DNA from: CAYFZR01 sp046760505 [NCBI: Candidatus Hydrothermarchaeota archaeon]
GTDB lineage: Archaea > CAYFZR01
Assembly: GCA_046760505.1 (NCBI GenBank)
Contig: JBHIEG010000008.1
Coordinates: forward strand, 1-64,000
Direction: 5' to 3'
DNA length: 64,000 nt
Shown: positions 3,864-44,210 of the stretch, one piece after another
How positions within the stretch are numbered: position 1 is the first letter of the stretch
Layout of the letters: each line of letters opens with the position of its first letter
Notes under the pieces: generated by a model
Told to the model about the DNA's origin: nothing
The model's database searches: none
Seen by the model: only the letters and a program-made list of their open reading frames with translations
Translations under genes and position numbers: made by a program

Positions 3864-4139
3864 CTATTTCTTCAGTTTTTGTAACTGGGGAGACGCTCCG
3901 AGTTACAGGATTGCAATGGAAGTGATGAGAAGTGAAGGCGGGTTTTAAAAAGGGAGAATAAAATTCCATCGTTTCTTTTTATTTTAAGTGAAATGCACTA
4001 GGTGTAAAATTTATATGGAGAGATTTGAGGTGGTTAATTACTAAACATATTTTTTAAGATTTTTATAGCAATTTTCTGGGAAATTATAACATATTTATAT
4101 CCAAAATCGAGATATACCAATTGTAACATAGTTTAATTG

Positions 4140-6458
4140 ATGCTGAAGTCAGTAAGGATAATTGTAACTGGAATTGTCCAAGCAGTGGGCTTTAGACCAT
4201 TTATTTATCGAATTGCCAAGAAAAATAAACTCAATGGATTCGTAAGGAACATTGGAAATGCGGTAGAAATCTCTGTTACAGGAGAAGAAGATGATATACA
4301 CTGGTTCATATCGGAAATAAAAAACGATCATCCTCCTCTAGCGGAGATAGATAACATAGTGGTTGAAGAAATTGATAAAAAAGAATTTTTTGAGTTCGAG
4401 ATTGTAGAGAGCAAGCCCAAGTTCCTTGCTACTGATTCAATGATACCATCTGACATTGCGATATGCAATGAATGTTTGAGAGAATTATTCGATCCAAAAG
4501 ACAGGAGATATGGATATCCATTTACCGTTTGCACAAACTGTGGTCCCAGATTCACCATAATAAAGGGAATTCCTTACGATAGAAAATTTACCACTATGGT
4601 TGAATTCCCAATGTGTAAATCTTGCAATGGGGAGTACACAGATCCTTTAGATAGAAGGTATCATGCGGAGCCAATTGCCTGCTGGGATTGCGGTCCTCTT
4701 GTCTTTCTCTTGGACAGTGAGGAGAAAGAGGTATCTCAGGATTTATCAGAGGTTACTAAACTCGTAGATGAGGGGAATATAGTCGCGATCAAGGGAATAG
4801 GAGGCTTTCATATAGCATGCAAGACAAGTGATGACGAAGTCGTTCTAAAATTAAGAAAAAAATTGAACAGAATGGAACAGCCCTTCGCAATTATGGCAAA
4901 GGATTTAGATTCAATAAAAAAATTCGCGGAAATAGATGAAATTGAAAAAAATGAAATAGAATCTATAAGCAGACCTATAGTTGTATTGAATAAGAAAGAT
5001 CCTTTTTTACTATCTGATTACGTTGCCCCGGGATTGCATACAATTGGTGTGATGTTGCCATACTCGGGACTGCACCACTTACTCATGAAAAATACAAGAG
5101 AACTCGCCTGGATCATGACAAGTGCCAATTTTCCCGGTGAACCCATGATCACTAGCCAGGATGAGGCTATAAAAAGGTTAAGTGGAGTAGCAGATTATTT
5201 CCTTGTACATAACAGAGAGATAGCGAACAGATGCGATGATTCCGTAATAAGATTTGTAGATAAGAAGAGGACTTTTTTAAGAAGATCAAGGGGTTTTGTC
5301 CCCAGACAAATTAATTTAGAATTAGAGTTTCCAACCGTGATTGGACTTGGAGCTGAATTAGACGTTACTTTAGCTATTTTAAAGAAAAAAAGGTGTTATC
5401 TATCTCAGCACATAGGAGATACATCTCGTGTTAGCACGCTAGAATTTTTAAAATCTGCCCTAGAACACATGATGAAGATAACAGACGTCAAGGAATACGA
5501 AGCGATTGCATGTGACATGCATCCAAGTTTCAATACCACAAAATATGCGTTTGAGCTCTCCCAAAAGGTTGTTCAGGTTCAACATCACCACGCTCATATA
5601 GTTTCACTTATGGCAGAGAAAAAAGTATCTGAACCATTAATTGGTATTGCATGCGATGGGATGGGTTATGGAACAGACGGAATATGGGGTGGGGAGATAA
5701 TACTCTCAAGTTTAGATGATTTTGAGAGACTTGCTTCTTTAACTCCATATCCATTGATAGGAGGAGATTTAGCGACTAGATACCCTAGCAGGATTCTGCT
5801 TGGAATTTTAAACGATGTTGTTGAGAGAAGTAAAATAGAGAAGTACTTTGAAAGTGTAAATTACACGGGATTTAAGTACGGAAAAAAGGAATTTGAAATC
5901 TGTTTAAGACAGTTAGACAATAATATAAATGTTTTTCAGTCAACAAGTATGGGAAGAGTTTTAGATTCTATTTCTGCTTTATTAAACGTGTGTTTGGTGA
6001 GAACCTACGAGGGAGAACCAGCGATGAAACTGGAGTCTTATGCAAGAAAGGGAGAACCAAAAATTAAGCTACCGATAGAGTTTCGCAAAATTGATGGAAT
6101 AAGAAGACTAGATGTGAGCTTAATTTTAAAGGAGATATTTGAAAGTAAATCAAGACCTAGAGATCTTGCTGCCTCAGCTCAAAAAACACTTGCAGAGGGA
6201 CTTGCTATACTAGCTGGCGAGTTTTCAGAAAAATATGGTTTCGCAGCAGGTATGAGTGGAGGAGTTGCTTACAATGAAAGTATAGTAAGAACTATAAGAG
6301 AATACCTTGAAGAAGAAAGGATAAAGTTCTATACCCACACACTTGTACCTTCTGGAGACGGTGGATTGGCTCTTGGACAATCCGTTGTGGCTGGAGCAAA
6401 GATTCTAAATGAAAAGAATTACATTCTTTCAATGCCTAAATCATCTAGAATCAGTTGA
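4140..6458 (+). CDS. hypF: Carbamoyltransferase HypF
   Basis: HypF makes the CN ligands of the NiFe hydrogenase active site by moving a carbamoyl group from carbamoyl phosphate to HypE. All domains are present in 772 residues. The acylphosphatase domain (1-90) has GIVQAVGFRPF. Two zinc fingers use C109/C112/C131/C134 and C159/C162/C181/C184. A YrdC-like domain spans about 200-375, and a Kae1-like domain follows with an HHHAH metal motif. ATG at 4140 is preferred over the TTG one codon earlier. A TATA-like ATTTATAT lies about 45 bases upstream. The 3' end overlaps the convergent protease gene by 40 bases. Confidence 0.96.
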   Translation: MLKSVRIIVTGIVQAVGFRPFIYRIAKKNKLNGFVRNIGNAVEISVTGEEDDIHWFISEIKNDHPPLAEIDNIVVEEIDKKEFFEFEIVESKPKFLATDSMIPSDIAICNECLRELFDPKDRRYGYPFTVCTNCGPRFTIIKGIPYDRKFTTMVEFPMCKSCNGEYTDPLDRRYHAEPIACWDCGPLVFLLDSEEKEVSQDLSEVTKLVDEGNIVAIKGIGGFHIACKTSDDEVVLKLRKKLNRMEQPFAIMAKDLDSIKKFAEIDEIEKNEIESISRPIVVLNKKDPFLLSDYVAPGLHTIGVMLPYSGLHHLLMKNTRELAWIMTSANFPGEPMITSQDEAIKRLSGVADYFLVHNREIANRCDDSVIRFVDKKRTFLRRSRGFVPRQINLELEFPTVIGLGAELDVTLAILKKKRCYLSQHIGDTSRVSTLEFLKSALEHMMKITDVKEYEAIACDMHPSFNTTKYAFELSQKVVQVQHHHAHIVSLMAEKKVSEPLIGIACDGMGYGTDGIWGGEIILSSLDDFERLASLTPYPLIGGDLATRYPSRILLGILNDVVERSKIEKYFESVNYTGFKYGKKEFEICLRQLDNNINVFQSTSMGRVLDSISALLNVCLVRTYEGEPAMKLESYARKGEPKIKLPIEFRKIDGIRRLDVSLILKEIFESKSRPRDLAASAQKTLAEGLAILAGEFSEKYGFAAGMSGGVAYNESIVRTIREYLEEERIKFYTHTLVPSGDGGLALGQSVVAGAKILNEKNYILSMPKSSRIS

Positions 6459-6886
6459 ATGACCCTTGGAATTGATTCTTCGACTTTTTGCGTGCATTTT
6501 TCATCAAATGTTGTGCAGTCCTCTATCTCTATCGCATAAATAATAATGTCCTCAGGCATTCTTTCTTCCATGAGGATTCTTCCGGTTTCCAAGACAGTTG
6601 GTAAGTCCAAAACATGAGTTGATCTTATATTTTGTGATTTAGGAAGTTCTTGAGGCTTTAGCCTGTAAATTTCCCCAGGCTCTCCTTCTTCAGTCTTTAT
6701 CGCATCTACGATGATGACTCTTTGATAATCGATAATGAAATCAAGTAAATCTAATCCCGCAACGCTTGCTTCACTTACATAAATGTTATCTGGAAGATTT
6801 AATTCCCTCATTTTTCTTATTACATGAATTCCAACACCGTCATCTCTTAGAAGTGGATTTCCTATTCCAAGTATTAAAGTTTTCAT
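6419..6886 (-). CDS. Hydrogenase maturation protease (M52 family)
   Basis: A 155-residue endopeptidase that would clip the C-terminal tail of a NiFe large subunit once nickel is in. It opens GIGNPLLRDDGVG. The nickel-sensing residues of the family appear as D16, D61 and H91. It is the only such protease in the window, while two large subunits (14579-16078 and 17169-18596) both carry tails after their last cysteine motif, so it may serve both. It overlaps hypD by 4 bases. Confidence 0.92.
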   Translation of the reverse strand: MKTLILGIGNPLLRDDGVGIHVIRKMRELNLPDNIYVSEASVAGLDLLDFIIDYQRVIIVDAIKTEEGEPGEIYRLKPQELPKSQNIRSTHVLDLPTVLETGRILMEERMPEDIIIYAIEIEDCTTFDEKCTQKVEESIPRVIQLILDDLGIERM

Positions 6887-7959
6887 GAAACCACTTCGTA
6901 CTTATAGGCTACCTGGCAACTCCCTTCAACTGAGACCATGCATGGGCCTAAAGGAGTTACAGGAGTGCATCTTTCACCAAATAATTTACACTCATGTGGC
7001 TTTTTGTTTCCTCTCAAAATTTCTCCGCAGAGGCATTCTTTATAAAAATGGGGTGCTTCTTGGAACTCTATATCAAATTTTTCCAAAGTATCGTATTTTT
7101 TATATCTTTCTTTAAGTTTAAAAGAAGCATTTGGAATCACAGGAAAACCTCTCCATCTCCGAGATTCTACATCGAATACCTTTTCCATCATTTTTTTTGC
7201 ACGTACATTCCCTTTTTGCCTGACAGATCTCTTGTACTCGTTGAATACAGAGTTGTCTTTTTCCTTAAGCATCTTCAATATCTTTAATATACTAAGTAAA
7301 ACATCGTTTGGCTCAAATCCTGTAATTGCCTGCGGGATCTTGTATTTCTCTGAAATGGGTATGTAAGGTTCAACCCCAATAATAGTAGAGACATGTCCCG
7401 GCTCTATGAGGGCATCTAACTTAATTTCTTCGGTATCAAGTAAAAAATCTATTGCTGGGGGGATTAATCTGTGAGAACATATTATAGAGAAATTTTCTGG
7501 TAAATTTTTCATTAGAATACTTGCTGTAGAAGGAGCAGTGGTCTCAAACCCTATTGCAGAGAATATGACCTCCTCTTTAGAATTTTTTGCCTGTTTCAGT
7601 GCATCTAGTGGCGAATAAACTACTCTTATATCACCGCCCATTCCCCTCGCATTATATAATGACATCTCACTTCCCGGAACCCTTAATAAATCACCGTAAA
7701 CAAATATCCTATTTCCTTCTAAGGCTAGCTTAATCGCAACATCTATTTCTTCTGGAGGTGTTATACAAACAGGACATCCTGGTCCGGCTACAACCTCTAT
7801 GTTTTGCGGAAGCAGTGAGCGTAGACCGAATCTAGCTATAGTATCCTCATGAGTACCGCAAACATGCATTATTCTTACAGAATCAAATTCTTTCGAGAGG
7901 TCATTTATTTTTTCAATAAGCAATCTGCTTATTCTTTCATCTCGGTAATAATCTAGCAT
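6883..7959 (-). CDS. hypD: Hydrogenase assembly Fe-S protein HypD
   Basis: HypD, with HypC, is the scaffold on which the Fe(CN)2CO unit is built. The 358-residue protein shows the redox and iron-binding cysteines of the family: MHVCGTHEDT near residue 35, GPGCPVCITP near 60, and a C-terminal [4Fe-4S] region with CLCGEILRG, CTPVTPLGPCMVS and GSCQ. Length is normal. It abuts hypC (stop and start share one base) and overlaps the protease gene, so hypC-hypD-protease form one transcript. Confidence 0.96.
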   Translation of the reverse strand: MLDYYRDERISRLLIEKINDLSKEFDSVRIMHVCGTHEDTIARFGLRSLLPQNIEVVAGPGCPVCITPPEEIDVAIKLALEGNRIFVYGDLLRVPGSEMSLYNARGMGGDIRVVYSPLDALKQAKNSKEEVIFSAIGFETTAPSTASILMKNLPENFSIICSHRLIPPAIDFLLDTEEIKLDALIEPGHVSTIIGVEPYIPISEKYKIPQAITGFEPNDVLLSILKILKMLKEKDNSVFNEYKRSVRQKGNVRAKKMMEKVFDVESRRWRGFPVIPNASFKLKERYKKYDTLEKFDIEFQEAPHFYKECLCGEILRGNKKPHECKLFGERCTPVTPLGPCMVSVEGSCQVAYKYEVVS

Positions 7960-8177
7960 TATATGGTCTCCAAAAGTTCTTTCCAGAGTTCTAATGAGTC
8001 CAGTGCTTCTTCCTTTGATAAAATCTGAATAGCATAGCCAACGTGAACTATTACATAGTCCCCTGGTTCTACTCTTTCGAGAAGAGAGGTATCAACTTCT
8101 CTTAGCACGCCACCAATATCTACCAATGCCTTATTGTCCCTTATTTCTTTCACCAGTCCGGGTATCGCGAGACACAA
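7959..8177 (-). CDS. hypC: Hydrogenase chaperone HypC (TTG start)
   Basis: HypC carries iron with its ligands from HypD to the large-subunit precursor, using a cysteine directly after the initiator Met. Here the family start MCLAIPG appears as TTG-TGT-CTC-GCG at 8177, so TTG must be the initiator. A longer frame from ATG 8204 would bury that cysteine and is rejected. The protein has 72 residues and the GDYVIVHVGYAIQ segment of the HypC/HupF fold. Confidence 0.95.
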   Translation of the reverse strand: MCLAIPGLVKEIRDNKALVDIGGVLREVDTSLLERVEPGDYVIVHVGYAIQILSKEEALDSLELWKELLETI

Positions 8178-8207
8178 ATATAACAAACCCAAAGAATATG
8201 ACATCGA

Positions 8208-8230
8208 ACCAATATTTATAAGATATTATC
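8208..8230. promoter_or_regulatory. Divergent hypC/hypE promoter region
   Basis: The 67 bases between hypC and hypE hold a single AT block, ATATTTATAAGATATTAT. It offers a TATA-like element on each strand at roughly 20-30 bases from each start. One element may serve both the hypCD-protease operon and hypE. Confidence 0.4.
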
Positions 8231-8244
8231 GAGTAGGTGGGGTT

Positions 8245-9255
8245 ATGAAGATCACCTTAGCTCATGGTTCAGGTGGAGAACTCACAAACAGACTTATTGA
8301 AAGGGTAATAATGAAAAAAATTAAACTCAAAGAATTTAAAGAAGGAATTGGCATCCCTGCCTTGGACGATGGAGCAAGCATACCATTTGATGAGTTTGAT
8401 ATTGTTTTGACAACAGATTCCCATACAGTTAAACCAATATTTTTTCCCGGTGGAGATATAGGAAAACTCTCTGTCTGTGGTACAATCAACGATCTTGCAG
8501 TAATGGGGGCCAAACCCATGGCAATTCTATCTTCTTTTGTTATAGAAGAAGGATTCGAAGTTTCTGATTTAGAAAAGATTCTTTCATCCATGGACAGTGT
8601 TAGCAAGGCTTTAAATGTCCCTATTATTGGTGGAGACACCAAGGTTATGGGAAAGGGAGAATTAGACGAAATAATCATAACAACAACAGGAATAGGTATA
8701 GCAAACAAAAAATCCCTCACTTTGGATTCAAATGTAAGGATCGGGGACAAGATAATTTTATCAGGCACAATAGGAGACCATGGAATAGCTATTTTAACAA
8801 GCAGAGAAGGTTTTGAGGTAGAAGGGGAAATAAAATCCGATCTGAATGAGATTTGGACGATGGTAGAGGGAGTAATTGATAAGGTAAATGCAATGAAAGA
8901 TCCTACCAGAGGTGGGCTTTCAGCTGCATTAATAGACTTTGCATCCAAGTCAAATGTAGGAATAGAAATATTTGAGGATAGAATACCTATAAAGAAAGAA
9001 GTAAAATCTATATGCGAGATGCTGGGATTGAATCCTTATGACCTTACGAATGAAGGCAAAGTGGTTATAGCAGTAAGTCCTGAAAATGCAGATTCCGTTT
9101 TAGAACATCTTAGGTCAACTTATCAAGGAAAAGAAGCACAGATTATTGGCGAAGCAACAGATACCTATGCTGGAAAGGTAATATTGAATACCGTAGTAGG
9201 AGGGAAAAGATTTCTGGAAAGACCAATTGGAGACCCGATTCCCAGGATCTGTTAA
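8245..9255 (+). CDS. hypE: Hydrogenase maturation protein HypE
   Basis: HypE accepts the carbamoyl group from HypF on its C-terminal cysteine and dehydrates it with ATP to a thiocyanate, the CN donor. The 336-residue protein begins MKITLAHGSGGELTNRLI, contains the PurM/SelD-like ATP-binding segments (IPALDDGASIP, GGDTKVMGKG) and ends PRIC with the essential terminal cysteine. The start at 8245 follows an AGGTGG ribosome site; the frame upstream runs into the hypC region and is not used. A T8 run right after the stop looks like its terminator. Confidence 0.96.
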   Translation: MKITLAHGSGGELTNRLIERVIMKKIKLKEFKEGIGIPALDDGASIPFDEFDIVLTTDSHTVKPIFFPGGDIGKLSVCGTINDLAVMGAKPMAILSSFVIEEGFEVSDLEKILSSMDSVSKALNVPIIGGDTKVMGKGELDEIIITTTGIGIANKKSLTLDSNVRIGDKIILSGTIGDHGIAILTSREGFEVEGEIKSDLNEIWTMVEGVIDKVNAMKDPTRGGLSAALIDFASKSNVGIEIFEDRIPIKKEVKSICEMLGLNPYDLTNEGKVVIAVSPENADSVLEHLRSTYQGKEAQIIGEATDTYAGKVILNTVVGGKRFLERPIGDPIPRIC

Positions 9256-9263
9256 TTTTTTTT
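9256..9263 (+). terminator. Poly-T terminator after hypE
   Basis: Eight consecutive T residues start immediately after the hypE stop codon and lie between the convergent ends of hypE and hypA. Archaeal RNA polymerase terminates at such runs without needing a hairpin. Confidence 0.55.
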
Positions 9264-9638
9264 CTATTCTATAGAGTCTTCAACTTCCATGTTGATCTTT
9301 TCGATTATGCATTCGTTTCCTTTTCTTATTTCAGGCATTCCATTGCAAACAGGACACTTTATGTAAATTAACTGGTGAGATTCCTCTTTGTAATCTAAGG
9401 GTCCGGTGTAACCGCAGTTGCATTCGCCTTCTGCTTTTTGCATTTTTATCTTAAAATCCGCCCCCTTAATTATATCATCATCGATCAATGTTTCTAATAA
9501 GAATTTAAGCTGTTCTGGATCTAAAAAGAGCAGCTCTCCTAAATTTAATTCCACTGATATTACTTTATGTGCTTTGTGCTTTTTCGCCTCTTTTTTAATT
9601 TTTTCCAAAATGTTAGATGCAAATGCCAACTCATGCAT
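9264..9638 (-). CDS. hypA: Hydrogenase nickel chaperone HypA
   Basis: HypA binds nickel through its N-terminal MHE (His2) and delivers it to the large subunit. The 124-residue protein begins MHELAFASNILEKI. Its zinc domain reads CNCG then CPVCNG, a CxC/CxxC arrangement. A GGTGG ribosome site precedes the ATG. Its usual partner gene hypB (nickel GTPase) is not beside it nor elsewhere in the window. Confidence 0.95.
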   Translation of the reverse strand: MHELAFASNILEKIKKEAKKHKAHKVISVELNLGELLFLDPEQLKFLLETLIDDDIIKGADFKIKMQKAEGECNCGYTGPLDYKEESHQLIYIKCPVCNGMPEIRKGNECIIEKINMEVEDSIE

Positions 9639-13182: not shown

Positions 13183-13183
13183 A

Positions 13184-13603
13184 ATGGATGATTTCGAACC
13201 AAATATAATAGGTTTTTTGTGCAGATGGTGTTCTTATGCAGGAGCAGACCTCGCGGGAATAGACAGAATGCACTATCCTCCGAATGTAAGAGTTATCAGA
13301 GTTATGTGTTCAGGAAGAATAGATCCATTATTCGTTTTAGAGGCATTTAGACAGGGTATAGACGGCGTGTTAATAATGGGATGTCATCCGGATGAATGTC
13401 ATCATGTCTCTGGAAATCTCAAGGCACTCAAAAGAGTTACACTCCTAAAAAAATTGATGGAACAACTTGGATTAAATCCAAAAAGGCTGAGGCTTGACTG
13501 GATCTCTGCTTATGAAGGGGGTAAGTTTGCAAAGGTTTCAACTGAAATGGTTCAAGAGATAAAGAAAATAGGTCCAAATCCTTTAAAGGAGGATTTAAGA
13601 TGA
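13184..13603 (+). CDS. mvhD: Hydrogenase iron-sulfur subunit MvhD
   Basis: MvhD carries a [2Fe-2S] cluster and joins hydrogenase to HdrA. The 139-residue protein has the family cysteines in FLCRWCSYAGAD, VMCSGRIDP and GCHPDECHH. Its place between hdrB and mvhG is the classical arrangement. It overlaps mvhG by 4 bases. Confidence 0.95.
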   Translation: MDDFEPNIIGFLCRWCSYAGADLAGIDRMHYPPNVRVIRVMCSGRIDPLFVLEAFRQGIDGVLIMGCHPDECHHVSGNLKALKRVTLLKKLMEQLGLNPKRLRLDWISAYEGGKFAKVSTEMVQEIKKIGPNPLKEDLR

Positions 13604-14586: not shown

Positions 14587-16078
14587 AATGCCTAAGATAT
14601 TCGATGAGCCTGAGACAATTACTACAAGAAATATAACCATAAAGCCGATTACCCGCTTAGAAGGTCACGGAAAGATCGACATATTCCTAAACGATCAGGG
14701 AAACGTTAGGGACGCATACTTCCAAGTTGTTGAACTACGCGGTTTTGAAAGATTTTGCATAGGAAGACCTGTTGAAGAACTTCCCAGAATAACTCCAAGA
14801 ATATGTGGTGTTTGTCCCGGTCCCCATCACATGGCTTCTACGAAAGCAACTGATGCTGTATTTGGAGCAGAAGTACCAGAGCCGGCAAAGAAGTTAAGGG
14901 AACTTTACTACATGGCTCATATTATTCACAGCCACATAGCGCATTTCTATGTACTTGCTGCTCCTGACTTCATACTGGGTCCTGCAGAAGATCCAAGCAA
15001 AAGAAATATTGTAGGAGTGATAGAAGCAGTAGGAAAAGATACCGTTAACGATGTTATTACGCATAGAGCATATGCACAAAAGATTCAAGAGATAATAGGT
15101 GGTAGAGCAACACATTCTGTTTGCGGCCTGCCAGGGGGAATGTCTAAGGCAATAAGTGAGGAGGAAAGAAAAGAAATCGAAACGATGGCAAGATCTTGCG
15201 TTAACTTCTCGAGAAGATCTATCCAGATTTTTGAAGATTTGGTTCTCGGTAATGATACCTATGTAGATATTATTAAGGGAGACATATACAAGAATCAAAC
15301 ATATTACATGGGTCTTGTTGATGAAGAGAACAGGCTAAACCTGTATGATGGAAAGATAAGAGTTGTTGATCAGAAAGGAAATGAATTCACTAAATTTGAG
15401 GCAAAAGATTATTTGGAACATATCGCCGAGCATGTAGAGCCCTGGACCTATCTAAAGTTTCCATATCTAAAGGCTATCGGATGGAAAGGTCTAATCGATG
15501 GTCAGGAGAGTGGAGTATATAGAGTAGGACCTCTTGCAAGACTTAATGTAGCAGATGAAATTCCAACACCGCTTGCTCAAGAGGAATACGAGAAAATGAT
15601 TGAGATTCTTGGAGGAAAACCTGTTCATGCGACTCTTGCATATCACTGGGCAAGATTGATTGAACTGTTGTATGCAAGTGAGCGGTTGCATGAACTCTCA
15701 GTGGATCCAGAAATAACGAGTAATGATATTAGGGGAAAATTAGGCGAACCGAGCGAAGGAGTAGGCGTAATCGAGGCACCAAGAGGGACACTTTTCCATC
15801 ACTATATCACAGATGAAAGTGGTATCGTAAAAGAAATAAATTTAATAGTTGCGACAGGAAATAATAACGCTGCGATATGCATTTCGGTTAAAAAAGCAGC
15901 AGAATCTCTTATAAGAGACTGGAAGGTTAGTAACGGACTTTTAAATATGATAGAAATGGCTTTTAGAGCCTACGATCCTTGTTTCGCCTGCGCAACTCAT
16001 GCATTAGGTCGCATACCTCTAGATGTTCGGATATATGATAACGAAAAGAGATTGTTCAAAAGACTTACCAACTTTTGA
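14579..16078 (+). CDS. mvhA: Group 3c NiFe hydrogenase large subunit MvhA
   Basis: Catalytic H2-activating subunit. Nickel ligands are C76/C79 in RICGVCPGPHH and C468/C471 in DPCFACATH. A 25-residue tail follows the final His, which the maturation protease at 6419 would remove if this enzyme is processed in the standard way. The ATG at 14579 overlaps the mvhG stop; an ATG at 14588 is an alternative. A longer frame from 14501 lies wholly inside mvhG and is not used. The stop directly abuts the stop of the convergent roadblock gene. Confidence 0.95.
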   Translation: MVEMPKIFDEPETITTRNITIKPITRLEGHGKIDIFLNDQGNVRDAYFQVVELRGFERFCIGRPVEELPRITPRICGVCPGPHHMASTKATDAVFGAEVPEPAKKLRELYYMAHIIHSHIAHFYVLAAPDFILGPAEDPSKRNIVGVIEAVGKDTVNDVITHRAYAQKIQEIIGGRATHSVCGLPGGMSKAISEEERKEIETMARSCVNFSRRSIQIFEDLVLGNDTYVDIIKGDIYKNQTYYMGLVDEENRLNLYDGKIRVVDQKGNEFTKFEAKDYLEHIAEHVEPWTYLKFPYLKAIGWKGLIDGQESGVYRVGPLARLNVADEIPTPLAQEEYEKMIEILGGKPVHATLAYHWARLIELLYASERLHELSVDPEITSNDIRGKLGEPSEGVGVIEAPRGTLFHHYITDESGIVKEINLIVATGNNNAAICISVKKAAESLIRDWKVSNGLLNMIEMAFRAYDPCFACATHALGRIPLDVRIYDNEKRLFKRLTNF

Positions 16079-16423
16079 TTATAACATGCTTTCTAGCTTT
16101 TCCTTGGCATCGTTCATCTCTAGACGTATCAAACCGATATTTACATCTCTGTCAGTGATTACCGCCAGTATGGCTTTTCCTACATCCAGCACGAGAATCT
16201 TACCGTTTTCGGCTTCTATCATTGCTTGAGTTAACTTACCTTGTCCGGTCCTTTCAGCGGACTTTTCCCCAGTACCAAAGATGGCTGCACTCATCGCTCC
16301 AATCATATCTCCATCCATCGATTTTGGGAGTGCATTAGCTATTAGTAAGCCATCCTTTCCAACGATGAGAGAGCCAACTATGCCGTCTACCTTGGTCAAA
16401 TCTGAGAGCACGACATCTATCAT
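16079..16423 (-). CDS. Roadblock/LC7 domain protein
   Basis: A 114-residue protein with the roadblock pattern: IVGSLIVGKDGLLIANALPKSMDGDMIGAMSAAI, then a strand-rich half with KILVLDVGKAILAVITDRDVNIGLIRLEM. Roadblock proteins dimerise and typically regulate small GTPases or act as scaffolds. None is proven here. It is the last gene of the second hydrogenase operon, preceded by a clear GAGGTGAT ribosome site 5 bases behind the unknown-protein gene. Confidence 0.88.
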   Translation of the reverse strand: MIDVVLSDLTKVDGIVGSLIVGKDGLLIANALPKSMDGDMIGAMSAAIFGTGEKSAERTGQGKLTQAMIEAENGKILVLDVGKAILAVITDRDVNIGLIRLEMNDAKEKLESML

Positions 16424-16427
16424 AACA

Positions 16428-16931
16428 TCACCTCATGGCTTCCTCCAGTATCTTATCGATGAACTGTTCATCTGGATCTTTTAGTCTATATTTTTTCATA
16501 AGCGTCTTTCTATCAATTTCGAAGGCTCCAATCAACCTTTCAAAGAATTTTTTACATTCTGTTTTTAGGGAGCCGTTTCTCTGAATGAATGATAACGTTG
16601 TTTTGAAATTGGCTTCTTCAGGATCATATACTATAAATTCAAATTCTTCTTTTACATCTTCTACCAATTTTTCACCTGCAATATCTCCAACCAGTCCTCC
16701 GGCATCGGAATAAAATACTGATAGTGCTCTGCCTTCTTTGAATATTATCCAGACATCTCGATTGATACTTTTTTTAGGGAAAAATATCCGGAGATAACCA
16801 CTAAATTTATCTTTTCTCAGTTTCTTAAGTTTATTCACAAATTCGCAGGGATCGATAATTCTTTCTTCCTCTAATATATGGGATTTACTCATTACCCATG
16901 ATAAGTTTGAGAGATAGTCATTCTTCTTCAT
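16428..16931 (-). CDS. Uncharacterised hydrogenase-operon protein (possibly DUF2226/DUF4388-like)
   Basis: A 167-residue soluble protein I do not firmly recognise. The segment FVNKLKKLRKDKFSGYLRIF followed by VWIIFKEGRALSVFYSD resembles the N-terminal part of DUF2226/DUF4388-type domains, which often accompany roadblock proteins and two-component regulators. It overlaps the ferredoxin gene by 4 bases and precedes the roadblock gene, so it is firmly in the operon. A regulatory or scaffolding role is inference. Confidence 0.55.
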   Translation of the reverse strand: MKKNDYLSNLSWVMSKSHILEEERIIDPCEFVNKLKKLRKDKFSGYLRIFFPKKSINRDVWIIFKEGRALSVFYSDAGGLVGDIAGEKLVEDVKEEFEFIVYDPEEANFKTTLSFIQRNGSLKTECKKFFERLIGAFEIDRKTLMKKYRLKDPDEQFIDKILEEAMR

Positions 16932-17176
16932 CTCATCCTCTCTATCATTTTAATTGCATTTGTATCCCAGTAATATACCTTTACCTCCACTGTTTCATTA
17001 AAGTCTATGGCTTCTGCGGGACATCTATCAATGCAATTCAAACAAATTATGCAGTCTTCCTTCCTCTTTATATCAGGAACATCATCCTCGTTTTTTTCAA
17101 ACACTGTGGTTGGACAAATATCTACGCATATGTTGCATTTTTTACAAAGGTCTTTGTCTATGAAGATTTCAGGCAT
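16928..17176 (-). CDS. 2[4Fe-4S] ferredoxin (hydrogenase-linked)
   Basis: An 82-residue protein with two full cluster motifs: C11, C14, C17, C21 and C42, C45, C48, C52, each last Cys followed by Pro. A basic C-terminal extension (VKVYYWDTNAIKMIERMR) goes beyond a minimal ferredoxin and may dock to the hydrogenase. It overlaps the large-subunit gene by 8 bases. It is the probable electron outlet of this hydrogenase, since no mvhD accompanies it. Confidence 0.92.
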   Translation of the reverse strand: MPEIFIDKDLCKKCNICVDICPTTVFEKNEDDVPDIKRKEDCIICLNCIDRCPAEAIDFNETVEVKVYYWDTNAIKMIERMR

Positions 17177-18596
17177 TATTTACCTCCTTTGAATATCTTT
17201 TAATGTAATGCAAATTCCCCTCGTGGTCAAATATTTCGATTTCACTACAAAATCTGCCTATTCTATGTGTAGCACATGAGAGACAAGGATCATGGGCTCT
17301 GACTGCAATTTCTATTAGATTTAACTTATTTTCATCCACTTTGCCGTCGCTGATTGCTTTTCTAGAAGCGTCTAAAATTGCCTGATTAATCGCCTTGTTG
17401 TTAATCTGCGTAGCCACTATTATATTCGCCCCCTTTATCCTACCCTTTTCATCTATCTCATAATGATGTATTAAAGTACCTCTAGGTGCCTCAACATGAC
17501 CTATTCCCACATTTTTGTACTCTCCTATATCTGCCCTGTATTCTCCATTCAAATCCTCAGATGATAGTTCTAGAGCCTTTTCAGATGCATACAACAACTC
17601 TATGAGCCTAGCATAATGATAAAGTAGAGTTGCGTGAGCCGGTCTCCCATAAGTCTCTCTAAAAATCTCAAGTTCTTCCTGTGCTCTTGGAGTTTCCATT
17701 TTTTCAGTAAGATTTATCCTAGCAAGTGTATTGACTCTAAAAGTGCCATTTTCATAGCCCGCTTTCTTATAGTAGGGGAACTTCATATACGTCCATTTTT
17801 CAGCCCTCTCTGCGATGAATTCAATATAATCTTGAGTCTTGAATTTCTCAATCAAATTGCCTTCAGGATCCATTATACAAAGGTCTCCTTCATAATAATT
17901 CATGCAGCCATTTTTTAGGGTTCCAAGGAAGTATGTTTCAAAGACTGCTAAATTTTCAATTAATTCATTGTACTTCTCAAATATACCTTTTCCTAATTCT
18001 AAAGTGAATTCTGCTAGATCTAAGGATTCTTTTGCGAGTTCTCTAACCTTTAATAAGGTTTTTTCATCTGGTAAATTTGCAACTCCGCCAGGAACAGCTA
18101 CGATTGGATGTATTTGCTGACCGCCGAGTAATTTGTTAATTGTCTGACCATTACTCCTTAATTTAAGGGCTTTTTTTGCCAATTCAGGTTGTTTTTTCGC
18201 AATACCTAAAACATTTCTCTCCTCGCTTGGAGAATCCGGACCCATTATAAAATCAGGTCCAGCCAGAATGAAAAAAGAAAGTGCATGACTGTGAATCATA
18301 TGACCAAGGTACATCAATTCTCTAATTTTTTTTGCTGTTTCAGGGATTTCAACATCAAATAAATCATCCACAGCTTTTGCGCTTGCTAGATGATGGGCTG
18401 AAGGACAAACACCACATATTCTTGGAGTTATTCTCGGCATTTCCTCAACACGATAACCTTCCAAAAATTTTTCAAACCCTCTAAGTTCCATGACTTGGAA
18501 TCTGGCATCGTTTACTTCCCCTTTATCATCTAAGAAGAGAGAAACTTTGGCATGGCCTTCAATTCTTGTTACAGGCTCAATAACAATTTTTTTCAT
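17169..18596 (-). CDS. Second NiFe hydrogenase large subunit (group 3c-like)
   Basis: A 475-residue catalytic subunit with nickel ligands C61/C64 (RICGVCPSAHH) and C438/C441 (DPCLSCATH). A 31-residue tail follows. It is clearly a paralogue of MvhA at 14579-16078 (shared ITPRICGVCP, RGTLIHHY, ARLIELLYASE), but diverged. It overlaps the small-subunit gene by 4 bases. With no Hdr or MvhD genes alongside, its partner is probably the adjacent ferredoxin. Confidence 0.93.
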   Translation of the reverse strand: MKKIVIEPVTRIEGHAKVSLFLDDKGEVNDARFQVMELRGFEKFLEGYRVEEMPRITPRICGVCPSAHHLASAKAVDDLFDVEIPETAKKIRELMYLGHMIHSHALSFFILAGPDFIMGPDSPSEERNVLGIAKKQPELAKKALKLRSNGQTINKLLGGQQIHPIVAVPGGVANLPDEKTLLKVRELAKESLDLAEFTLELGKGIFEKYNELIENLAVFETYFLGTLKNGCMNYYEGDLCIMDPEGNLIEKFKTQDYIEFIAERAEKWTYMKFPYYKKAGYENGTFRVNTLARINLTEKMETPRAQEELEIFRETYGRPAHATLLYHYARLIELLYASEKALELSSEDLNGEYRADIGEYKNVGIGHVEAPRGTLIHHYEIDEKGRIKGANIIVATQINNKAINQAILDASRKAISDGKVDENKLNLIEIAVRAHDPCLSCATHRIGRFCSEIEIFDHEGNLHYIKRYSKEVNNA

Positions 18597-19507
18597 AACT
18601 CCTTCACCATCATTATTCTTGGCTTGGCAAGCATTATTTTTGAAGCAGCTGTAAATGTGTAAGGCATCTTTGAAGCCTCTTTCATGTGGTTAATCACTTC
18701 TTCTAGTTCTATATTTGTTATGGCACTAACTAGTTCAGCTAGAGAATAACCAACATCCTTGAATGGATTTTTCAATATTTTCTCTGATGGTCCATTACAT
18801 CCATTGCAAGGGATACCGTTGCTCGGACATTTTGCATTGCATCCGCCCATTGTAACGGATCCCATGCAGATCAATCCATGGCTTATCAAGCATTTCTCAT
18901 CGGTTATTTTCCCCTCATAACTTCTTCTCAATCTATCTAACTCAACCCTTTCCATGATTCGATTACACTCAGAACAAACGGTTTTTCTTTTTTCTCCTTT
19001 TTTATTCTCTATTACATTAGATATTGCAGTTACTATGTTCTCAGGTGTGGGGGGGCAACCAACTATGTAGAAATCCACATCCACTACTTCATCTAACGTC
19101 TTAACACTTCTTGTTAGTTCTGGCAAACCTTCTTCTTCACTCGGACACACTCCAGTATATTCAGCAGTTACAACGTCCCTATAAACTTTCTTTTTCAATT
19201 CATCAGGAGGATAAAGTCCTCCAAGCGAGAATAAACCTCCATGACAGGCACATGTACCAAATGCAATTAGTGTATCTGCCTTCTCTCTCATTATCTTGGC
19301 TTTTTCTTCGTTTTCTGAATTTCTTATGCACCCACTCACTATGGCAACGTCACACTTAGGAAGTTCTTTTATGTCCATAAGTACTGGAGAATAAACGACT
19401 TCTACCTGTTCTAGGAGAGATAATAGATTTTCATCTAAGTCTAGGATTCCGATCTCGCATCCCCCGCAGATTGCTAACCATTCTGTTGCCAATGTCAATT
19501 TTGACAT
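18593..19507 (-). CDS. Second NiFe hydrogenase small subunit (MvhG-like)
   Basis: A 304-residue Fe-S subunit with AICGGCEIGILD, GTCACHGG, GCPPTPEN and a C-terminal cysteine-rich region (CSECN, GGCNAKC, CNGC). It parallels MvhG almost motif for motif. No signal peptide, so cytoplasmic. It starts at the base following the V4R gene stop, within one operon. Confidence 0.93.
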   Translation of the reverse strand: MSKLTLATEWLAICGGCEIGILDLDENLLSLLEQVEVVYSPVLMDIKELPKCDVAIVSGCIRNSENEEKAKIMREKADTLIAFGTCACHGGLFSLGGLYPPDELKKKVYRDVVTAEYTGVCPSEEEGLPELTRSVKTLDEVVDVDFYIVGCPPTPENIVTAISNVIENKKGEKRKTVCSECNRIMERVELDRLRRSYEGKITDEKCLISHGLICMGSVTMGGCNAKCPSNGIPCNGCNGPSEKILKNPFKDVGYSLAELVSAITNIELEEVINHMKEASKMPYTFTAASKIMLAKPRIMMVKEL

Positions 19508-19981
19508 TTAATCCTCCTCAAAGATCAATTTTTTTAGACAGGCGTTTATTCCCGCCTTCTCAATCTCTAAATCAACTCTTTTCCCTAGAACTACACCAAG
19601 TGCTCCAACAATGTACCCATGAGTCAAATAACAAAGTATCCCTTCTTGTTCAATTCCTTCTCTCATTAGAGTATTCCTGATGGGACAATGTCTGAATACT
19701 AGCTCACAACACAATCTCCCATCTTCGTCGATAAACATATATTCATCTCTTTCACTTCTTTTAAAAAGTTCAATTTCCCATGCACCTTCAAATAGCCTGC
19801 TAATCTCATCAATTGCTTCATTCAGATCTTCTGTTCTTCTAGCCTTAGATGCAAGCTCAATTCCAAGGGATTTTCCCGAATTATAGCTCATTGACTTTGC
19901 CCCAAAGCCGAGAGTATCCTCCAATGACGTAGCAAAACTACCCAAAATCGTCATTAGGAAATGGGTATCTTTTTCTATCAT
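19508..19981 (-). CDS. V4R-domain protein 1 (hydrogenase operon)
   Basis: A 157-residue protein whose C-terminal half has the V4R (4-vinyl reductase) pattern: RHCPIRNTL, then GILCYLTHGYIVGAL. V4R domains bind small hydrophobic ligands or metal via their cysteines and act as sensors. It sits directly ahead of the small subunit and just behind a second V4R gene. The two share layout but differ in sequence, so they may form a heterodimer. Ligand unknown. Confidence 0.78.
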   Translation of the reverse strand: MIEKDTHFLMTILGSFATSLEDTLGFGAKSMSYNSGKSLGIELASKARRTEDLNEAIDEISRLFEGAWEIELFKRSERDEYMFIDEDGRLCCELVFRHCPIRNTLMREGIEQEGILCYLTHGYIVGALGVVLGKRVDLEIEKAGINACLKKLIFEED

Positions 19982-20023
19982 TTTGCTTTACCCCATTTTA
20001 TTTTACCCTTTTTATCCTGCTCT

Positions 20024-20467
20024 TTACTCTACTTTCTTCACACATTTTTCATTAGTCTCAACTATCTTCACATCTCTCTTTTCATTGGTAAGATGGCTCA
20101 ATGTTCCCGCAATGATACCATTTACCAAAAAACAAGGTGCTCCTCCTTTTTCAACACCTCTTTCTTTAAGAGCATTACCAAGCGGGCAGGAATTAATTTT
20201 TAGAGTTATGCTTCCTTCATCTGACTCTATTTGATAGTCTTTTAACCCTATTATATCTAACAACTCTTTTATTTGTTCCAAAATATTTTCTTTAGTTATC
20301 AGTCTTGAATATCTCTCCCCATATCTTTTACTTGATTGATAACAAATTCCCTTGCCACCAGCCCCTATAAGATCCTCTACCGTCTCATCCACTGCTGTTA
20401 TAAGTATTTTAAGTGCCTCATGCATTCTTGCATAATCATCCTCATCAGGAGTTACGTGGAGAATCAC
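20024..20467 (-). CDS. V4R-domain protein 2 (first gene of the hydrogenase operon)
   Basis: A 147-residue protein from a GTG at 20467, with V4R features INSCPLGNAL and GAPCFLVNGIIAGTL. The GTG start is chosen because a TATA box (20498-20506) lies about 30 bases upstream and an AAGGGA site just precedes it; the longer frame to 20566 would include the promoter. It resembles V4R protein 1 in length and cysteine placement. As first gene of the operon it may report redox or ligand state to the hydrogenase. Confidence 0.78.
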   Translation of the reverse strand: MILHVTPDEDDYARMHEALKILITAVDETVEDLIGAGGKGICYQSSKRYGERYSRLITKENILEQIKELLDIIGLKDYQIESDEGSITLKINSCPLGNALKERGVEKGGAPCFLVNGIIAGTLSHLTNEKRDVKIVETNEKCVKKVE

Positions 20468-20497
20468 CGTTATCCCTTTATAATTTAATATAATGAG

Positions 20498-20506
20498 TTT
20501 TATATA
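20498..20506 (-). promoter_or_regulatory. TATA box of the second hydrogenase operon
   Basis: On the minus strand GTATATAAA stands about 30 bases ahead of the GTG at 20467, with an A/T-rich BRE-like stretch before it. A transcript would begin near 20475, leaving a leader of about 10 bases. Confidence 0.55.
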
Positions 20507-20692
20507 CTTTATCTCAACGATTATGGTTAAAATCCTCAAAAATATAGCGCTTATTTTCAATATCAAGAAATAAAATTACAAAGTAGTAATTATTTCCATT
20601 GAAGTATGTGAAATAACATTTAAGAATCAGTAAAAATAAAAACAAAAGATTCAAATTCCATAAAAGTATAGTAAGATGTGCTGGTGAAGGAA

Positions 20693-21400
20693 ATGAAGCA
20701 ATCAAACTTAAATACCGCGGAAGAATGGACTGAGAAGGGATACTCCTTTGAAAAGGATGGCTTGTTTGAAAAAGCAGTTGAATGTTATGATAAAGCGTTA
20801 GAGATCGATTCCAATTATGCAAAGGCATGGAATAATAAGGGAACCTCTCTTTTTACATTGAGAAAGTTTGGAGAAGCAATAAGATGTCTTGACAAGGCCT
20901 TAGAAATAGATCCAGATTATGCTGAGGCATGGAATAATAAAGGGATATGTCTTTTTTCCCTAAGAATGTTCGATGAAGCACTTAAATGCTTTGATAAAGC
21001 GCTGGAAATCGATCCAGAATCGCCAAACGTTTGGTTAAATAAAGGCAATGTCCTGCAAAACATGGGTAAGTACGATCAAGCCATAACATCATACGATATG
21101 GCTCTGAAATTAAATCCAAACTTGAAATGGGCATGGAGCAGTAAGGGATACACCCTCCATGGCATTGGTAATTTGAAGGAGGCAATAATCTGCTACGAAA
21201 AAGCCTTGGAGTTAGATCCCAAGCTTGCTGGAGTATGGAACAACAAGGGACTTGCTCTGAAGGATTTGGGCAGGTTGGAAGAGGCTTTAGAATGCTTCAA
21301 CAATGTTTTAGAGCTTGAACCCTCCCTCACTGTTGCCAAAGCTAATAGAGATATGGTATTAGACCTTATCAAGAAACGAGAAAAATACAGAGTTGATTAA
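20693..21400 (+). CDS. TPR-repeat protein
   Basis: A 235-residue protein made almost entirely of six 34-residue tetratricopeptide repeats, each with the W-N-K-G then A-x-x-(C/S)-Y/F-D-K-A-L-E-(I/L)-(D/N)-P pattern. TPR arrays mediate protein-protein contacts. No signal peptide or membrane segment, so soluble. ATG 20693 follows GGTG at a proper distance; GTG codons at 20678 and 20684 are alternatives. Partner unknown. Its stop lies 2 bases from the convergent ligase stop. Confidence 0.9.
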   Translation: MKQSNLNTAEEWTEKGYSFEKDGLFEKAVECYDKALEIDSNYAKAWNNKGTSLFTLRKFGEAIRCLDKALEIDPDYAEAWNNKGICLFSLRMFDEALKCFDKALEIDPESPNVWLNKGNVLQNMGKYDQAITSYDMALKLNPNLKWAWSSKGYTLHGIGNLKEAIICYEKALELDPKLAGVWNNKGLALKDLGRLEEALECFNNVLELEPSLTVAKANRDMVLDLIKKREKYRVD

Positions 21401-21402
21401 TA

Positions 21403-23175
21403 CTAAGCCTCTTCTTTCCTAACTTCCTCTACTCTCTTCAACTGTGCCCTGTACATCTCAACTATTTCCTCTACGCTCGTTGCTTCATTTGGTCCTTTGT
21501 CTATTCTCCATCTACCGGTAAATCTTGGAAATCTAACTGCAATCCCCGAATCCTCCCTGATTCTTCCAAATGCACATGTGTGAACAGGACTTAGTGTAAG
21601 CTCATCTCCTATTATCTCCATTACCAAATTTGGCTCAAACCAAACATCCGCCTCGAGTTCACTCTCCACGCTTGGATGTTTCTCGTCGATTTTATACGGG
21701 AGAAGCATCTCTGGAATTTTTTCCAGATCATCATCGGTAAAGCCGCTGCCAACCTTACAAACAGTATAAAACTTTTGTTCTTCTCTATCAATGACGCCTG
21801 TTAATAATGCTCCATAAGTACCTGATCTTTTTCCTCTACCTACAAAAGCTCCAACAACAACGACATCTATGGGTTCGATCATCATGGATTGATAAGAACG
21901 TTTTAGTTTGATCCAGAGCCATCCTCTTGCTCCGGCTTGGTAGACTCCGTCCAATGATTTCAGTATAAGTCCTTCACAGCCGGATGCAACTGCAAGTTCA
22001 AAGAAATTTTCAATTTCTTTGGGATCATCTGTAATTAAGGATTTTGCACATCTTATCCGTGTATTTTCTTTAACAATGCTTTTAAGTCTATTTCTTCTAT
22101 CCATGTAACTTTTTTGTGTCAGATCTTCTCCGTCTATGTAGAGTAGATCAAACAGATATAGGCTTATTGGAAATTTTTCCTTTGCCTCCTCAATTCCGTG
22201 TTTCCTTCTTCTGTGCATAAGCTGCTGGAAGGGCAGTAAATCTTCTGTATCAGGATCTACCGCAACACACTCCCCTTCTATAATTGCGTCTCTTGCCGTT
22301 ATATTTTTTTTAATCAGTTCGCTCACGTCAGGGTATTGATTTGTGATATTCTCAAGTCTTCTTGAGAAAAGAGCAATATTGTCTTTATTTTTATGTATCT
22401 GGATCCTCTCCCCATCGTATTTCCATTCACAAGCAGCTTTTCCACCAAGTTTTTCAAGAACCTCTTCTGGCGTAACAAGTCTTTGAGCCATCATCATTCT
22501 TATCGGTCTTCCAACCTTTACATGGTAGTTTCTCATTCCCTCAAGACCTTCTCTTGCTAGGGTCTTGGCTACGTCACCAAGATCCGATGTCAAGTTGTAT
22601 GCCCTCTCAATGAGTTCTCTGTTCGCTTTATCATTGGTATACGCAATCGAAAGTGCATCTAGGATTGTCATATCTGCTATACCAAGTCTTAGTTTTCCTA
22701 GAACTGCTCTTATAATGTATTTTGCCTCTTTTGGCGTTGCATCCGCCAATAAACCGGATAAAAGCCTTATCTTTAAATCTACACTTCCTGGACCCGTCGA
22801 TCTCGCTATCTTATCAAATGTCTCATAAACTTCCTTTACCGTTAAAGGCTTTGCGAAAAGAGTAGACTGCTTTTTACTTTTTGCTAGATGTTCAGCCGTT
22901 AAACCCAGGTCTCCTCTTTTCTTGAGATCCTTCTCTATTTCCTTAGTGCTGACACCAAATGCACCCGATATGGCACGAATAGCAAGTTTCTCTGCGATGC
23001 CCATTTCTAAATCCACGAAATCTGGATAAAGCTTTCCCTGAGTGAGATATGCGACCTTGTCTACAATATCTTCATCGCACTTTTTGAATAAATCTACCAA
23101 GTAATCGGTCATTTCAAGTCTTTTCGTAGTTGACTCTATGTGCTCATATACAGCTACCAACTCTGAATATTTCAA
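21403..23175 (-). CDS. lig: ATP-dependent DNA ligase
   Basis: A 590-residue archaeal replicative-type ligase that seals nicks using ATP. The adenylated lysine is in EWKYDGERIQIHK (about residue 252). An N-terminal DNA-binding domain (to about 225) and a C-terminal OB domain with WIKLKRSY and RFPRF complete the family layout. The TTG at 23175 gives the family opening MKYSELVAVYE and follows AGGTG at good spacing; a GTG at 23184 is the alternative. It diverges from the primase-like gene. Confidence 0.94.
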   Translation of the reverse strand: MKYSELVAVYEHIESTTKRLEMTDYLVDLFKKCDEDIVDKVAYLTQGKLYPDFVDLEMGIAEKLAIRAISGAFGVSTKEIEKDLKKRGDLGLTAEHLAKSKKQSTLFAKPLTVKEVYETFDKIARSTGPGSVDLKIRLLSGLLADATPKEAKYIIRAVLGKLRLGIADMTILDALSIAYTNDKANRELIERAYNLTSDLGDVAKTLAREGLEGMRNYHVKVGRPIRMMMAQRLVTPEEVLEKLGGKAACEWKYDGERIQIHKNKDNIALFSRRLENITNQYPDVSELIKKNITARDAIIEGECVAVDPDTEDLLPFQQLMHRRRKHGIEEAKEKFPISLYLFDLLYIDGEDLTQKSYMDRRNRLKSIVKENTRIRCAKSLITDDPKEIENFFELAVASGCEGLILKSLDGVYQAGARGWLWIKLKRSYQSMMIEPIDVVVVGAFVGRGKRSGTYGALLTGVIDREEQKFYTVCKVGSGFTDDDLEKIPEMLLPYKIDEKHPSVESELEADVWFEPNLVMEIIGDELTLSPVHTCAFGRIREDSGIAVRFPRFTGRWRIDKGPNEATSVEEIVEMYRAQLKRVEEVRKEEA

Positions 23176-23230
23176 ATGGGACACCTAAGAAATATTTTTA
23201 TCAAATTAGGTAATACTCTTTTTGGTTGAC

Positions 23231-41419: not shown

Positions 41420-41443
41420 TGCTGAAAAAAGACTAGCATTTTT
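41418..41443 (+). terminator. Hairpin/T-run terminator after trpA
   Basis: AATGCT (41418-41423) pairs with AGCATT (41435-41440) around an 11-base A-rich loop, and a short T run follows. It overlaps the stop codon of the convergent gene at 41433. Confidence 0.4.
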
Positions 41444-42032: not shown

Positions 42033-42036
42033 ACCA

Positions 42037-44198: not shown

Positions 44199-44210
44199 AA
44201 CATTCCTCCA

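What the first reader, a model, noticed from the sequence alone, without database searches (positions are those of the whole stretch)
16079..20506. Seven-gene hydrogenase operon with sensory-type partners
The minus-strand run V4R-V4R-small-large-ferredoxin-unknown-roadblock is joined by overlaps of a few bases or tiny gaps and starts from one TATA box. It encodes an Mvh-like NiFe hydrogenase without MvhD or Hdr genes. V4R proteins bind small ligands or metal; roadblock proteins regulate or scaffold. A hydrogenase whose output is a dedicated ferredoxin and whose genes travel with two sensor domains suggests H2-linked signalling or a gated H2:ferredoxin enzyme. I know of no described system of this exact make-up.
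Basis: partly seen in the sequence, partly recalled or inferred. Interest (0 to 1): 0.72.

Follow-up and report, generated by a model that had tools for sequence, protein, structure and literature searches.

The report
Mvh-type hydrogenase with sensor-fold companions
An archaeal DNA stretch carries a second, rewired copy of a well-known hydrogen enzyme, packed in one operon with its own small ferredoxin and with proteins of ligand-sensor and scaffold types, which hints that hydrogen-ferredoxin traffic there is switched on and off by a cell signal.

Summary
Seven minus-strand genes (16079-20467; gaps 42, 0, -4, -8, -4, +4 nt) encode two V4R-like proteins, MvhG- and MvhA-like hydrogenase subunits, a two-cluster ferredoxin, a DUF2226-like protein and a roadblock protein. 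The two large subunits are deep paralogs (45% identical), sisters inside the Mvh clade of a sparse tree. The odd copy keeps the NiFe ligands, 12 of 12 small-subunit cysteines and a C-terminal extension, so it looks like a working enzyme rather than a classical sensor hydrogenase. It departs from the published group 3c L2 motif (AHDPC, not AYDPC), and its small-subunit tail has diverged. My reading: an Mvh-derived, MvhD-free H2:ferredoxin oxidoreductase whose activity or assembly is controlled by a V4R pair and a roadblock/DUF2226 module. The enzyme core is fairly well supported; the control part is inference. Conservation in other archaea could not be tested: no whole genome is held for this window, and the single genome scan returned six bacterial relatives. 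The literature searches made show no description of this make-up.

The parts
20498..20510 (-). AAAGTATATAAAA, TATA-box-like stretch about 36 nt before the probable first start codon
   Evidence: sequence read; position against the GTG start; chance in this AT-rich stretch was not assessed
20024..20467 (-). V4R-like protein 1, 147 aa, GTG start (the ORF list gives a longer TTG start at 20566)
   Evidence: V4R 16.2 bits, below cut-off 31; structural rows MopR/DmpR/TRAPP; GxxxG pair in 'GIIAG'
19508..19981 (-). V4R-like protein 2, 157 aa, paralog of protein 1
   Evidence: 27% identity, E 3e-12; no Pfam match of its own; both GxxxG pairs present ('GKSLG', 'GYIVG')
18593..19507 (-). hydrogenase small subunit, MvhG-like, 304 aa
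   Evidence: 12 Cys invariant against three MvhG sequences, tail diverged
17169..18596 (-). hydrogenase large subunit, MvhA-like, 475 aa
16928..17176 (-). ferredoxin with two CxxCxxCxxxC motifs, 82 aa
16428..16931 (-). DUF2226-like protein, 167 aa
   Evidence: 25.8 bits against cut-off 22, residues 87-166 only; fold unresolved
16079..16423 (-). roadblock/LC7 protein, 114 aa
10007..16078 (+). neighbouring HdrA-HdrC-HdrB-MvhD-MvhG-MvhA operon, tail to tail with the above
4137..9638 (.). hydrogenase maturation genes hypF (+), maturation protease (-), hypD (-), hypE (+), hypA (-); hypB and hypC were not looked for

Best explanation
This is a second, Mvh-derived [NiFe]-hydrogenase uncoupled from the MvhD-Hdr bifurcating machine. 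Electrons run between the NiFe site, three [4Fe-4S] clusters of the small subunit and a dedicated two-cluster ferredoxin encoded next to it. It probably runs mainly from reduced ferredoxin to H2 when ferredoxin is in excess, and the reverse at high H2. The two V4R-like proteins probably form a heterodimer that binds a small hydrophobic ligand or a metal. With the roadblock and DUF2226-like proteins they would gate, assemble or place the enzyme. Shown by sequence: gene content and order, presence of the catalytic and cluster cysteines, paralogy. Inferred: ferredoxin as partner, direction, V4R heterodimer, gating.
For: Large and small subunits match MvhA/MvhG best, and the large subunit falls in the Mvh clade (96/99 with 13 rows, 100/99 with 12). 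L1 RICGVCPSAH, L2 DPCLSCATH, a 31-aa C-terminal extension and 12 Cys invariant across four MvhG-type sequences are kept. The operon carries a ferredoxin and no MvhD. The small subunit is 118/232 identical to 5odc MvhG up to the last of these Cys but only 10/52 after it; the neighbouring MvhG, which has an MvhD gene beside it, shows 104/235 and 19/58. Against 9sw2 the tails are 11/53 and 26/59. The window also encodes possibly ferredoxin-linked enzymes: an AFOR-family protein and a POR-gamma/TPP-like cluster. Ligand-binding companions near soluble NiFe genes have precedent: annotated cyclic-nucleotide-binding or CBS genes in 3 of the 5 plasmid loci that I opened (not in 23, which is a cytochrome b type, nor in 65).
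Against: The tail difference is not significant against 5odc (p 0.13), only against 9sw2 (p 0.0097), and columns are not independent. Nothing shows that the ferredoxin docks on this small subunit. In the mvh operon of methanogens MvhB, a polyferredoxin, binds HdrA instead (PMC12350162, passages), so the position after the large-subunit gene does not prove contact. No relative of the operon was found elsewhere, though no archaeal genome set could be searched. The V4R assignment rests on a low-confidence model and a sub-threshold Pfam score.
Confidence: 0.42

Rival explanations
1. It is an Mvh isoenzyme that plugs into the neighbouring operon's MvhD and HdrABC, differing only in regulation; the ferredoxin is the acceptor of HdrA.
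For: A complete Hdr-MvhD set lies 0 bp away. Small-subunit identity to 5odc MvhG up to the last cluster Cys is as high as the neighbour's (118/232 against 104/235, p 0.17). [quoted passage not shown]
Against: Tail after the last Cys pair diverged in this copy, with a short inserted stretch; L2 motif AHDPC; large-subunit paralogs only 45% identical.
Confidence: 0.2
2. The V4R pair and the DUF2226/roadblock proteins are assembly or maturation factors (metal or cofactor carriers), not regulators.
For: Three Cys are invariant between the two V4R-like proteins. V4R/TRAPPC3 relatives bind Zn through Cys (PMC10933270, section 12). The large subunit has a C-terminal extension of the kind removed in maturation.
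Against: General hyp genes and a maturation protease are already nearby. The roles described for V4R domains in PMC2253512 (section 3) are ligand binding and signalling.
Confidence: 0.18
3. It is an H2 sensor: the hydrogenase reports H2 to the V4R/roadblock proteins.
For: Sensor-type domains in the same run.
Against: C-terminal extension of 31 aa and all 12 Cys retained; classical regulatory hydrogenases lack the extension (recalled) and are histidine kinase-linked (HydDB group 2b, PMC5037454, passages). No kinase or GTPase domain was found in the seven proteins. A ferredoxin is included.
Confidence: 0.1
4. The V4R, DUF2226-like and roadblock genes share only the transcript and act elsewhere (for example in a GTPase or trafficking module).
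For: V4R and roadblock proteins occur in archaea without any hydrogenase link being described (Ignicoccus: PMC2614490, PMC3149612; Asgard: PMC10933270; passages). Runs of this size are usual in this window (5 runs of 5 or more genes).
Against: Overlaps of -4 and -8 nt and a 0-nt junction bind hydrogenase and companion genes on both sides.
Confidence: 0.1

Closest known systems
MvhAGD-HdrABC (group 3c [NiFe]-hydrogenase with heterodisulfide reductase; 5odc and 9sw2 series)
   Same: Large and small subunits with the same cysteines; small-large order followed by a ferredoxin-type gene
   Different: No MvhD or Hdr genes in the operon, a two-motif ferredoxin in place of polyferredoxin MvhB, four extra V4R/DUF2226/roadblock genes, L2 reads AHDPC, small-subunit tail diverged
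HydABCSL and HoxFUYH soluble hydrogenases (7t2r, 5xf9)
   Same: Cytosolic two-subunit NiFe core; ligand-binding-domain genes sit beside some such genes
   Different: No flavin diaphorase subunits here; the small subunit is long and MvhG-like; the tree separates them
Regulatory [NiFe]-hydrogenases, group 2b (RH/HupUV)
   Same: Hydrogenase together with sensor-type proteins
   Different: C-terminal extension present, no kinase domain in the run, group 3c lineage
V4R/TRAPP-Bet3 proteins and roadblock proteins of Asgard archaea and Ignicoccus
   Same: Likely fold of the V4R-like protein and the roadblock family
   Different: In the passages seen those are not described with a hydrogenase

Membership tests
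Group 3c [NiFe]-hydrogenase (MvhA) | L1 motif ICGxCxxxH (PMC6085437) | tested here: met
   RICGVCPSAH at residue 59
Group 3c [NiFe]-hydrogenase (MvhA) | L2 motif AYDPCccCATH (PMC6085437) | tested here: not met
   AHDPCLSCATH; the neighbour MvhA reads AYDPCFACATH
Group 3c [NiFe]-hydrogenase (MvhA) | Falls in the MvhA clade | tested here: met
   5-row Mvh clade 96/99 (13 rows) and 100/99 (12 rows); sampling sparse, only three Mvh rows from outside the window
Vhu/Mvh subunits (NCBIfam VhuA, VhuG) | Curated score cut-off | tested here: not met
   VhuA 428.7 of 800, VhuG 232.5 of 450; the neighbouring MvhA/MvhG are below too (436.4 and 210.3), so this does not set the odd copy apart
MvhAGD-HdrABC complex | MvhD and HdrABC encoded with it | tested here: not met
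   None among the seven genes; present in the neighbouring operon on the other strand
MvhAGD-HdrABC complex | Physical docking of the small subunit on MvhD | not testable with these tools
   No complex prediction; tail divergence is indirect
MvhB polyferredoxin | Twelve [4Fe-4S] clusters (PMC12350162) | tested here: not met
   Two CxxCxxCxxxC motifs in 82 aa
V4R domain (PF02830) | Pfam gathering score of 31 bits | tested here: not met
   16.2 bits for protein 1, no hit for protein 2
V4R/TRAPP-Bet3 fold | Structural match to solved V4R/Bet3 domains | tested here: inconclusive
   Rows 1-26 of 50 are V4R sensors, TRAPP or BcsD, best Z 8.7, but model pLDDT is 44.6, the tool warns that 7 to 8 is a usual best Z, and Foldseek alone gave no hit at E <= 0.001
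V4R/TRAPP-Bet3 fold | Gly pairs separated by three residues in helices 2 and 5 (PMC2253512) | tested here: inconclusive
   By eye: GKSLG and GYIVG in protein 2; GIIAG in protein 1, whose first pair reads S/G
Roadblock/LC7 (PF03259) | Gathering score of 23 bits | tested here: met
   65.2 bits; solved relatives 7yh1, 7f8m
Regulatory hydrogenase (group 2b) | No C-terminal extension on the large subunit (recalled) | tested here: not met
   31 aa after the last ligand His
Conserved operon type | Same gene order in other archaea | not tested
   No genome held for the window; genome scan found 6 relatives, all in records titled as bacteria

The most novel reading that the evidence does not exclude
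The operon encodes a ligand- or GTPase-gated hydrogenase: a V4R heterodimer of the TRAPP Bet3/Trs33 kind together with a roadblock platform, parts from which eukaryotic GTPase-control complexes are built, switches or positions an Mvh-derived H2:ferredoxin enzyme. That would be an archaeal link between redox metabolism and a proto-trafficking/GTPase module.
Probability: 0.1. Interest if true: 0.82.

Novelty: new variant of a known kind. Interest (0 to 1): 0.5.

Why it matters
Soluble [NiFe]-hydrogenases that use ferredoxin alone, without flavin bifurcation or a membrane, are hardly documented (general knowledge, not searched). If this one is real, a group 3c-type large subunit in an archaeal genome cannot be read automatically as H2-driven bifurcation; gene context (mvhD or not) and the L2 motif would have to be checked. 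Operon partners of the V4R and roadblock type would also give a concrete, testable function for two archaeal protein families, of which V4R is proposed as the ancestor of a eukaryotic trafficking part (PMC2253512, section 3).

Tried and rejected
Conservation search. The window's genome is not held. The single genome-contig scan with the large subunit gave 18 stretches and 6 relatives, all bacterial by record title. I looked at the ORFs of 2 of those 6 loci, L001 and L003, by eye: Hox-type operons with diaphorase-like genes. Three viral-contig scans found no relative. Plasmid tblastn with the large subunit: 132 records, 26 covering at least 80%. I opened 5 of the 30 listed; none shows a gene annotated as V4R or roadblock, but that annotation is incomplete. 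Small subunit: 17 records, none covering 80%. V4R protein 2: 8 records, best E about 1, chance level.

Structure. Two jobs, both low confidence (pLDDT 44.6 and 43.0). Foldseek gave no hit at E <= 0.001 for either, and its top rows for the V4R model were designed proteins. VIA-align rows for the DUF2226-like model stay below Z 5 and are dropped. Sequence searches of the PDB with the V4R pair (alignment A1) and with the DUF2226-like protein gave nothing up to E 10.

Considered and dropped. A PATAN/DUF4388-like N-terminus of the DUF2226-like protein (by eye only; no Pfam support). A classical H2 sensor (see rivals). The sigma-70 promoter scan (19 found against 15.2 expected) and terminator scan (1 against 2.5) are uninformative for an archaeon. 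Composition: the operon genes have 34-44% GC, the neighbour operon 38-43%, window 39%; I draw nothing from it.

Literature. Ten searches ran. bear on V4R or roadblock together with hydrogenases or archaea; the others on Mvh variants, DUF2226 or the MvhG-MvhD interface. No title or abstract start listed describes a hydrogenase with V4R and roadblock genes. The listings (20 of 756; 12 of 73) are capped. Papers listed that hold these words and that I did not open: PMC12316311, PMC5847659 and PMC10892978. I saw passages of 13 papers and, of two of these, one whole section (PMC2253512 section 3, PMC10933270 section 12); none in full. Most subscription papers are not held. A paper I recalled on minimal and hybrid archaeal hydrogenases was not among the two results.
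Full report
What is there. The minus strand carries seven genes from 20467 down to 16079: V4R-like 1 (147 aa, GTG), V4R-like 2 (157), hydrogenase small subunit (304), large subunit (475), ferredoxin (82), DUF2226-like (167) and roadblock (114), with gaps 42, 0, -4, -8, -4 and +4 nt. A TATATAAA stretch lies about 36 nt before the first start; I did not assess its chance in this AT-rich DNA. Such runs are common in this window: five same-strand runs of five or more genes (gaps up to 50 nt) among the 66 ORFs that I took as genes by eye. The operon form is therefore ordinary; the content is not.

On the plus strand, 10007-16078, lie HdrA, HdrC, HdrB, MvhD, MvhG and MvhA. Its last stop codon ends at 16078 and the roadblock stop begins at 16079. 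Hyp genes and a maturation protease lie just beyond (4137-9638). So the locus holds a canonical bifurcating-type set plus a second NiFe core in a different setting. Having two group 3c enzymes is not itself new: HydDB lists two for a bathyarchaeon (PMC5037454, passages).

What the second enzyme is. Best NCBIfam matches are VhuA (428.7 bits, cut-off 800) and VhuG (232.5, cut-off 450); the neighbour's subunits score alike (436.4 and 210.3) and are below the cut-offs too. Best solved relatives are Mvh subunits. Identity of the large subunit is 44.9% to its neighbour and 43-47% to three solved Mvh sequences. In a 13-row tree both window large subunits lie in a five-row Mvh clade (96/99) and are sisters (96/94); without the long outgroup row the values are 100/99 and 97/95. 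In a nine-row small-subunit tree the pair is supported only at 86/88. With three Mvh rows from outside the window this shows an old split inside the Mvh lineage, not its exact place.

Does it look active? L1 and L2 cysteines, the final His and a 31-residue C-terminal extension are present, and 12 cysteines are invariant across this and three other MvhG-type small subunits, the number needed for the three [4Fe-4S] clusters of MvhG (cluster count from PMC5861303, passages). Classical sensor hydrogenases lack the extension (recalled). L2 reads AHDPC where the published group 3c filter asks for AYDPC (PMC6085437, passages); the neighbour has AYDPC.

Is it wired differently? Up to the last of those cysteines the small subunit is 118/232 identical to 5odc MvhG, as good as the neighbour (104/235; p 0.17). 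After it the identity is 10/52 against 19/58, and versus 9sw2 MvhG 11/53 against 26/59. Fisher p values for the tails are 0.13 and 0.0097, on columns that are not independent. There is also a short insertion after the last cysteine pair. That MvhD takes electrons from this end of MvhG is my inference from the subunit order given in PMC9012536 and PMC5861303 (passages). A loosened tail in exactly the copy without mvhD is suggestive, not proof. The ferredoxin gene sits directly after the large-subunit gene, where mvhB sits in methanogens (recalled order), but MvhB binds HdrA (PMC12350162, passages), so position alone does not show the partner. Among solved chains the ferredoxin is nearest to polyferredoxins of the FwdF/FmdF and MvhB types.

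The companions. V4R is not reached by Pfam's own cut-off (16.2 of 31 bits; nothing for protein 2). The two proteins are homologous, carry three of the four Gly pairs looked for by eye (PMC2253512, section 3), and a weak model of protein 1 gives V4R sensors (7), TRAPP (11) and BcsD (8) as its first 26 of 50 VIA-align rows, best Z 8.7 with 94 residues at 3.1 A. Plain Foldseek on the same model put designed proteins first with no hit at E <= 0.001. I take V4R-like as likely, about 80% (judgement). Three cysteines are invariant between the pair. Roadblock is firm. The DUF2226-like protein stays unresolved.

How it most likely works. Ferredoxin reduced by oxidoreductases of the cell (an AFOR-family gene at 56913 and a POR/TPP-like cluster at 41433-44738 are in the window) passes electrons to the small subunit and on to protons, or the reverse at high H2. 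The V4R pair senses a hydrophobic ligand or metal and, with the roadblock and DUF2226-like proteins, sets activity, assembly or place. The presence of the catalytic core is shown by sequence; partner, direction and control are inferred. Precedent for ligand-binding partners near soluble NiFe genes: cyclic-nucleotide-binding or CBS genes in 3 of the 5 plasmid loci I opened (none in 23, a cytochrome b type, nor in 65).

What could not be tested. Whether the arrangement recurs in other archaea, and whether the proteins touch. The organism is archaeal by gene content (TrpE-arch above its cut-off; HdrB TIGR03288 above its cut-off; DUF2226, described as conserved in archaea); I could not place it further.

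Verdict. Real, unusual and not described in the listings of the ten searches made; a new variant of the Mvh kind whose special claim (gating) is unproven. Interest 0.5.

Noticed in passing
window 41433-44738 (-): Four-gene cluster: POR-gamma-like, an HdrD/TfrB-like iron-sulfur protein, a protein with a weak TPP-enzyme central-domain hit (24.1 bits, cut-off 30.4), and a TPP-enzyme C-terminal-domain protein; looks like a 2-oxoacid oxidoreductase with an Hdr-like subunit.
   Followed up: partly
window 58541-59575 (+): SelB-like GTPase of 344 aa (TIGR00475 164 bits, below cut-off 242; archaeal SelB domain III present) beside an AFOR-family gene at 56913-58538.
   Followed up: no
window 21403-24355: A 593-aa ORF that looks by eye like an archaeal ATP-dependent DNA ligase (not searched) lies back to back with a LigD-type primase-polymerase gene (PF21686), as in archaeal end-joining sets (recalled).
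   Followed up: no
window 20678-21400 (+): A TPR-repeat protein gene diverges from the hydrogenase operon, with about 210 nt between the two starts.
   Followed up: no
L010 1290-3956: Acaryochloris plasmid Hox locus with two CBS-domain genes, a polymer-forming cytoskeletal protein and a hypothetical protein between a small-subunit-like 'oxidoreductase' gene and the large-subunit gene.
   Followed up: no
window 10007-11758 (+): HdrA is 583 aa, shorter than the 650 aa given as usual for methanogens (PMC9012536, passages).
   Followed up: no
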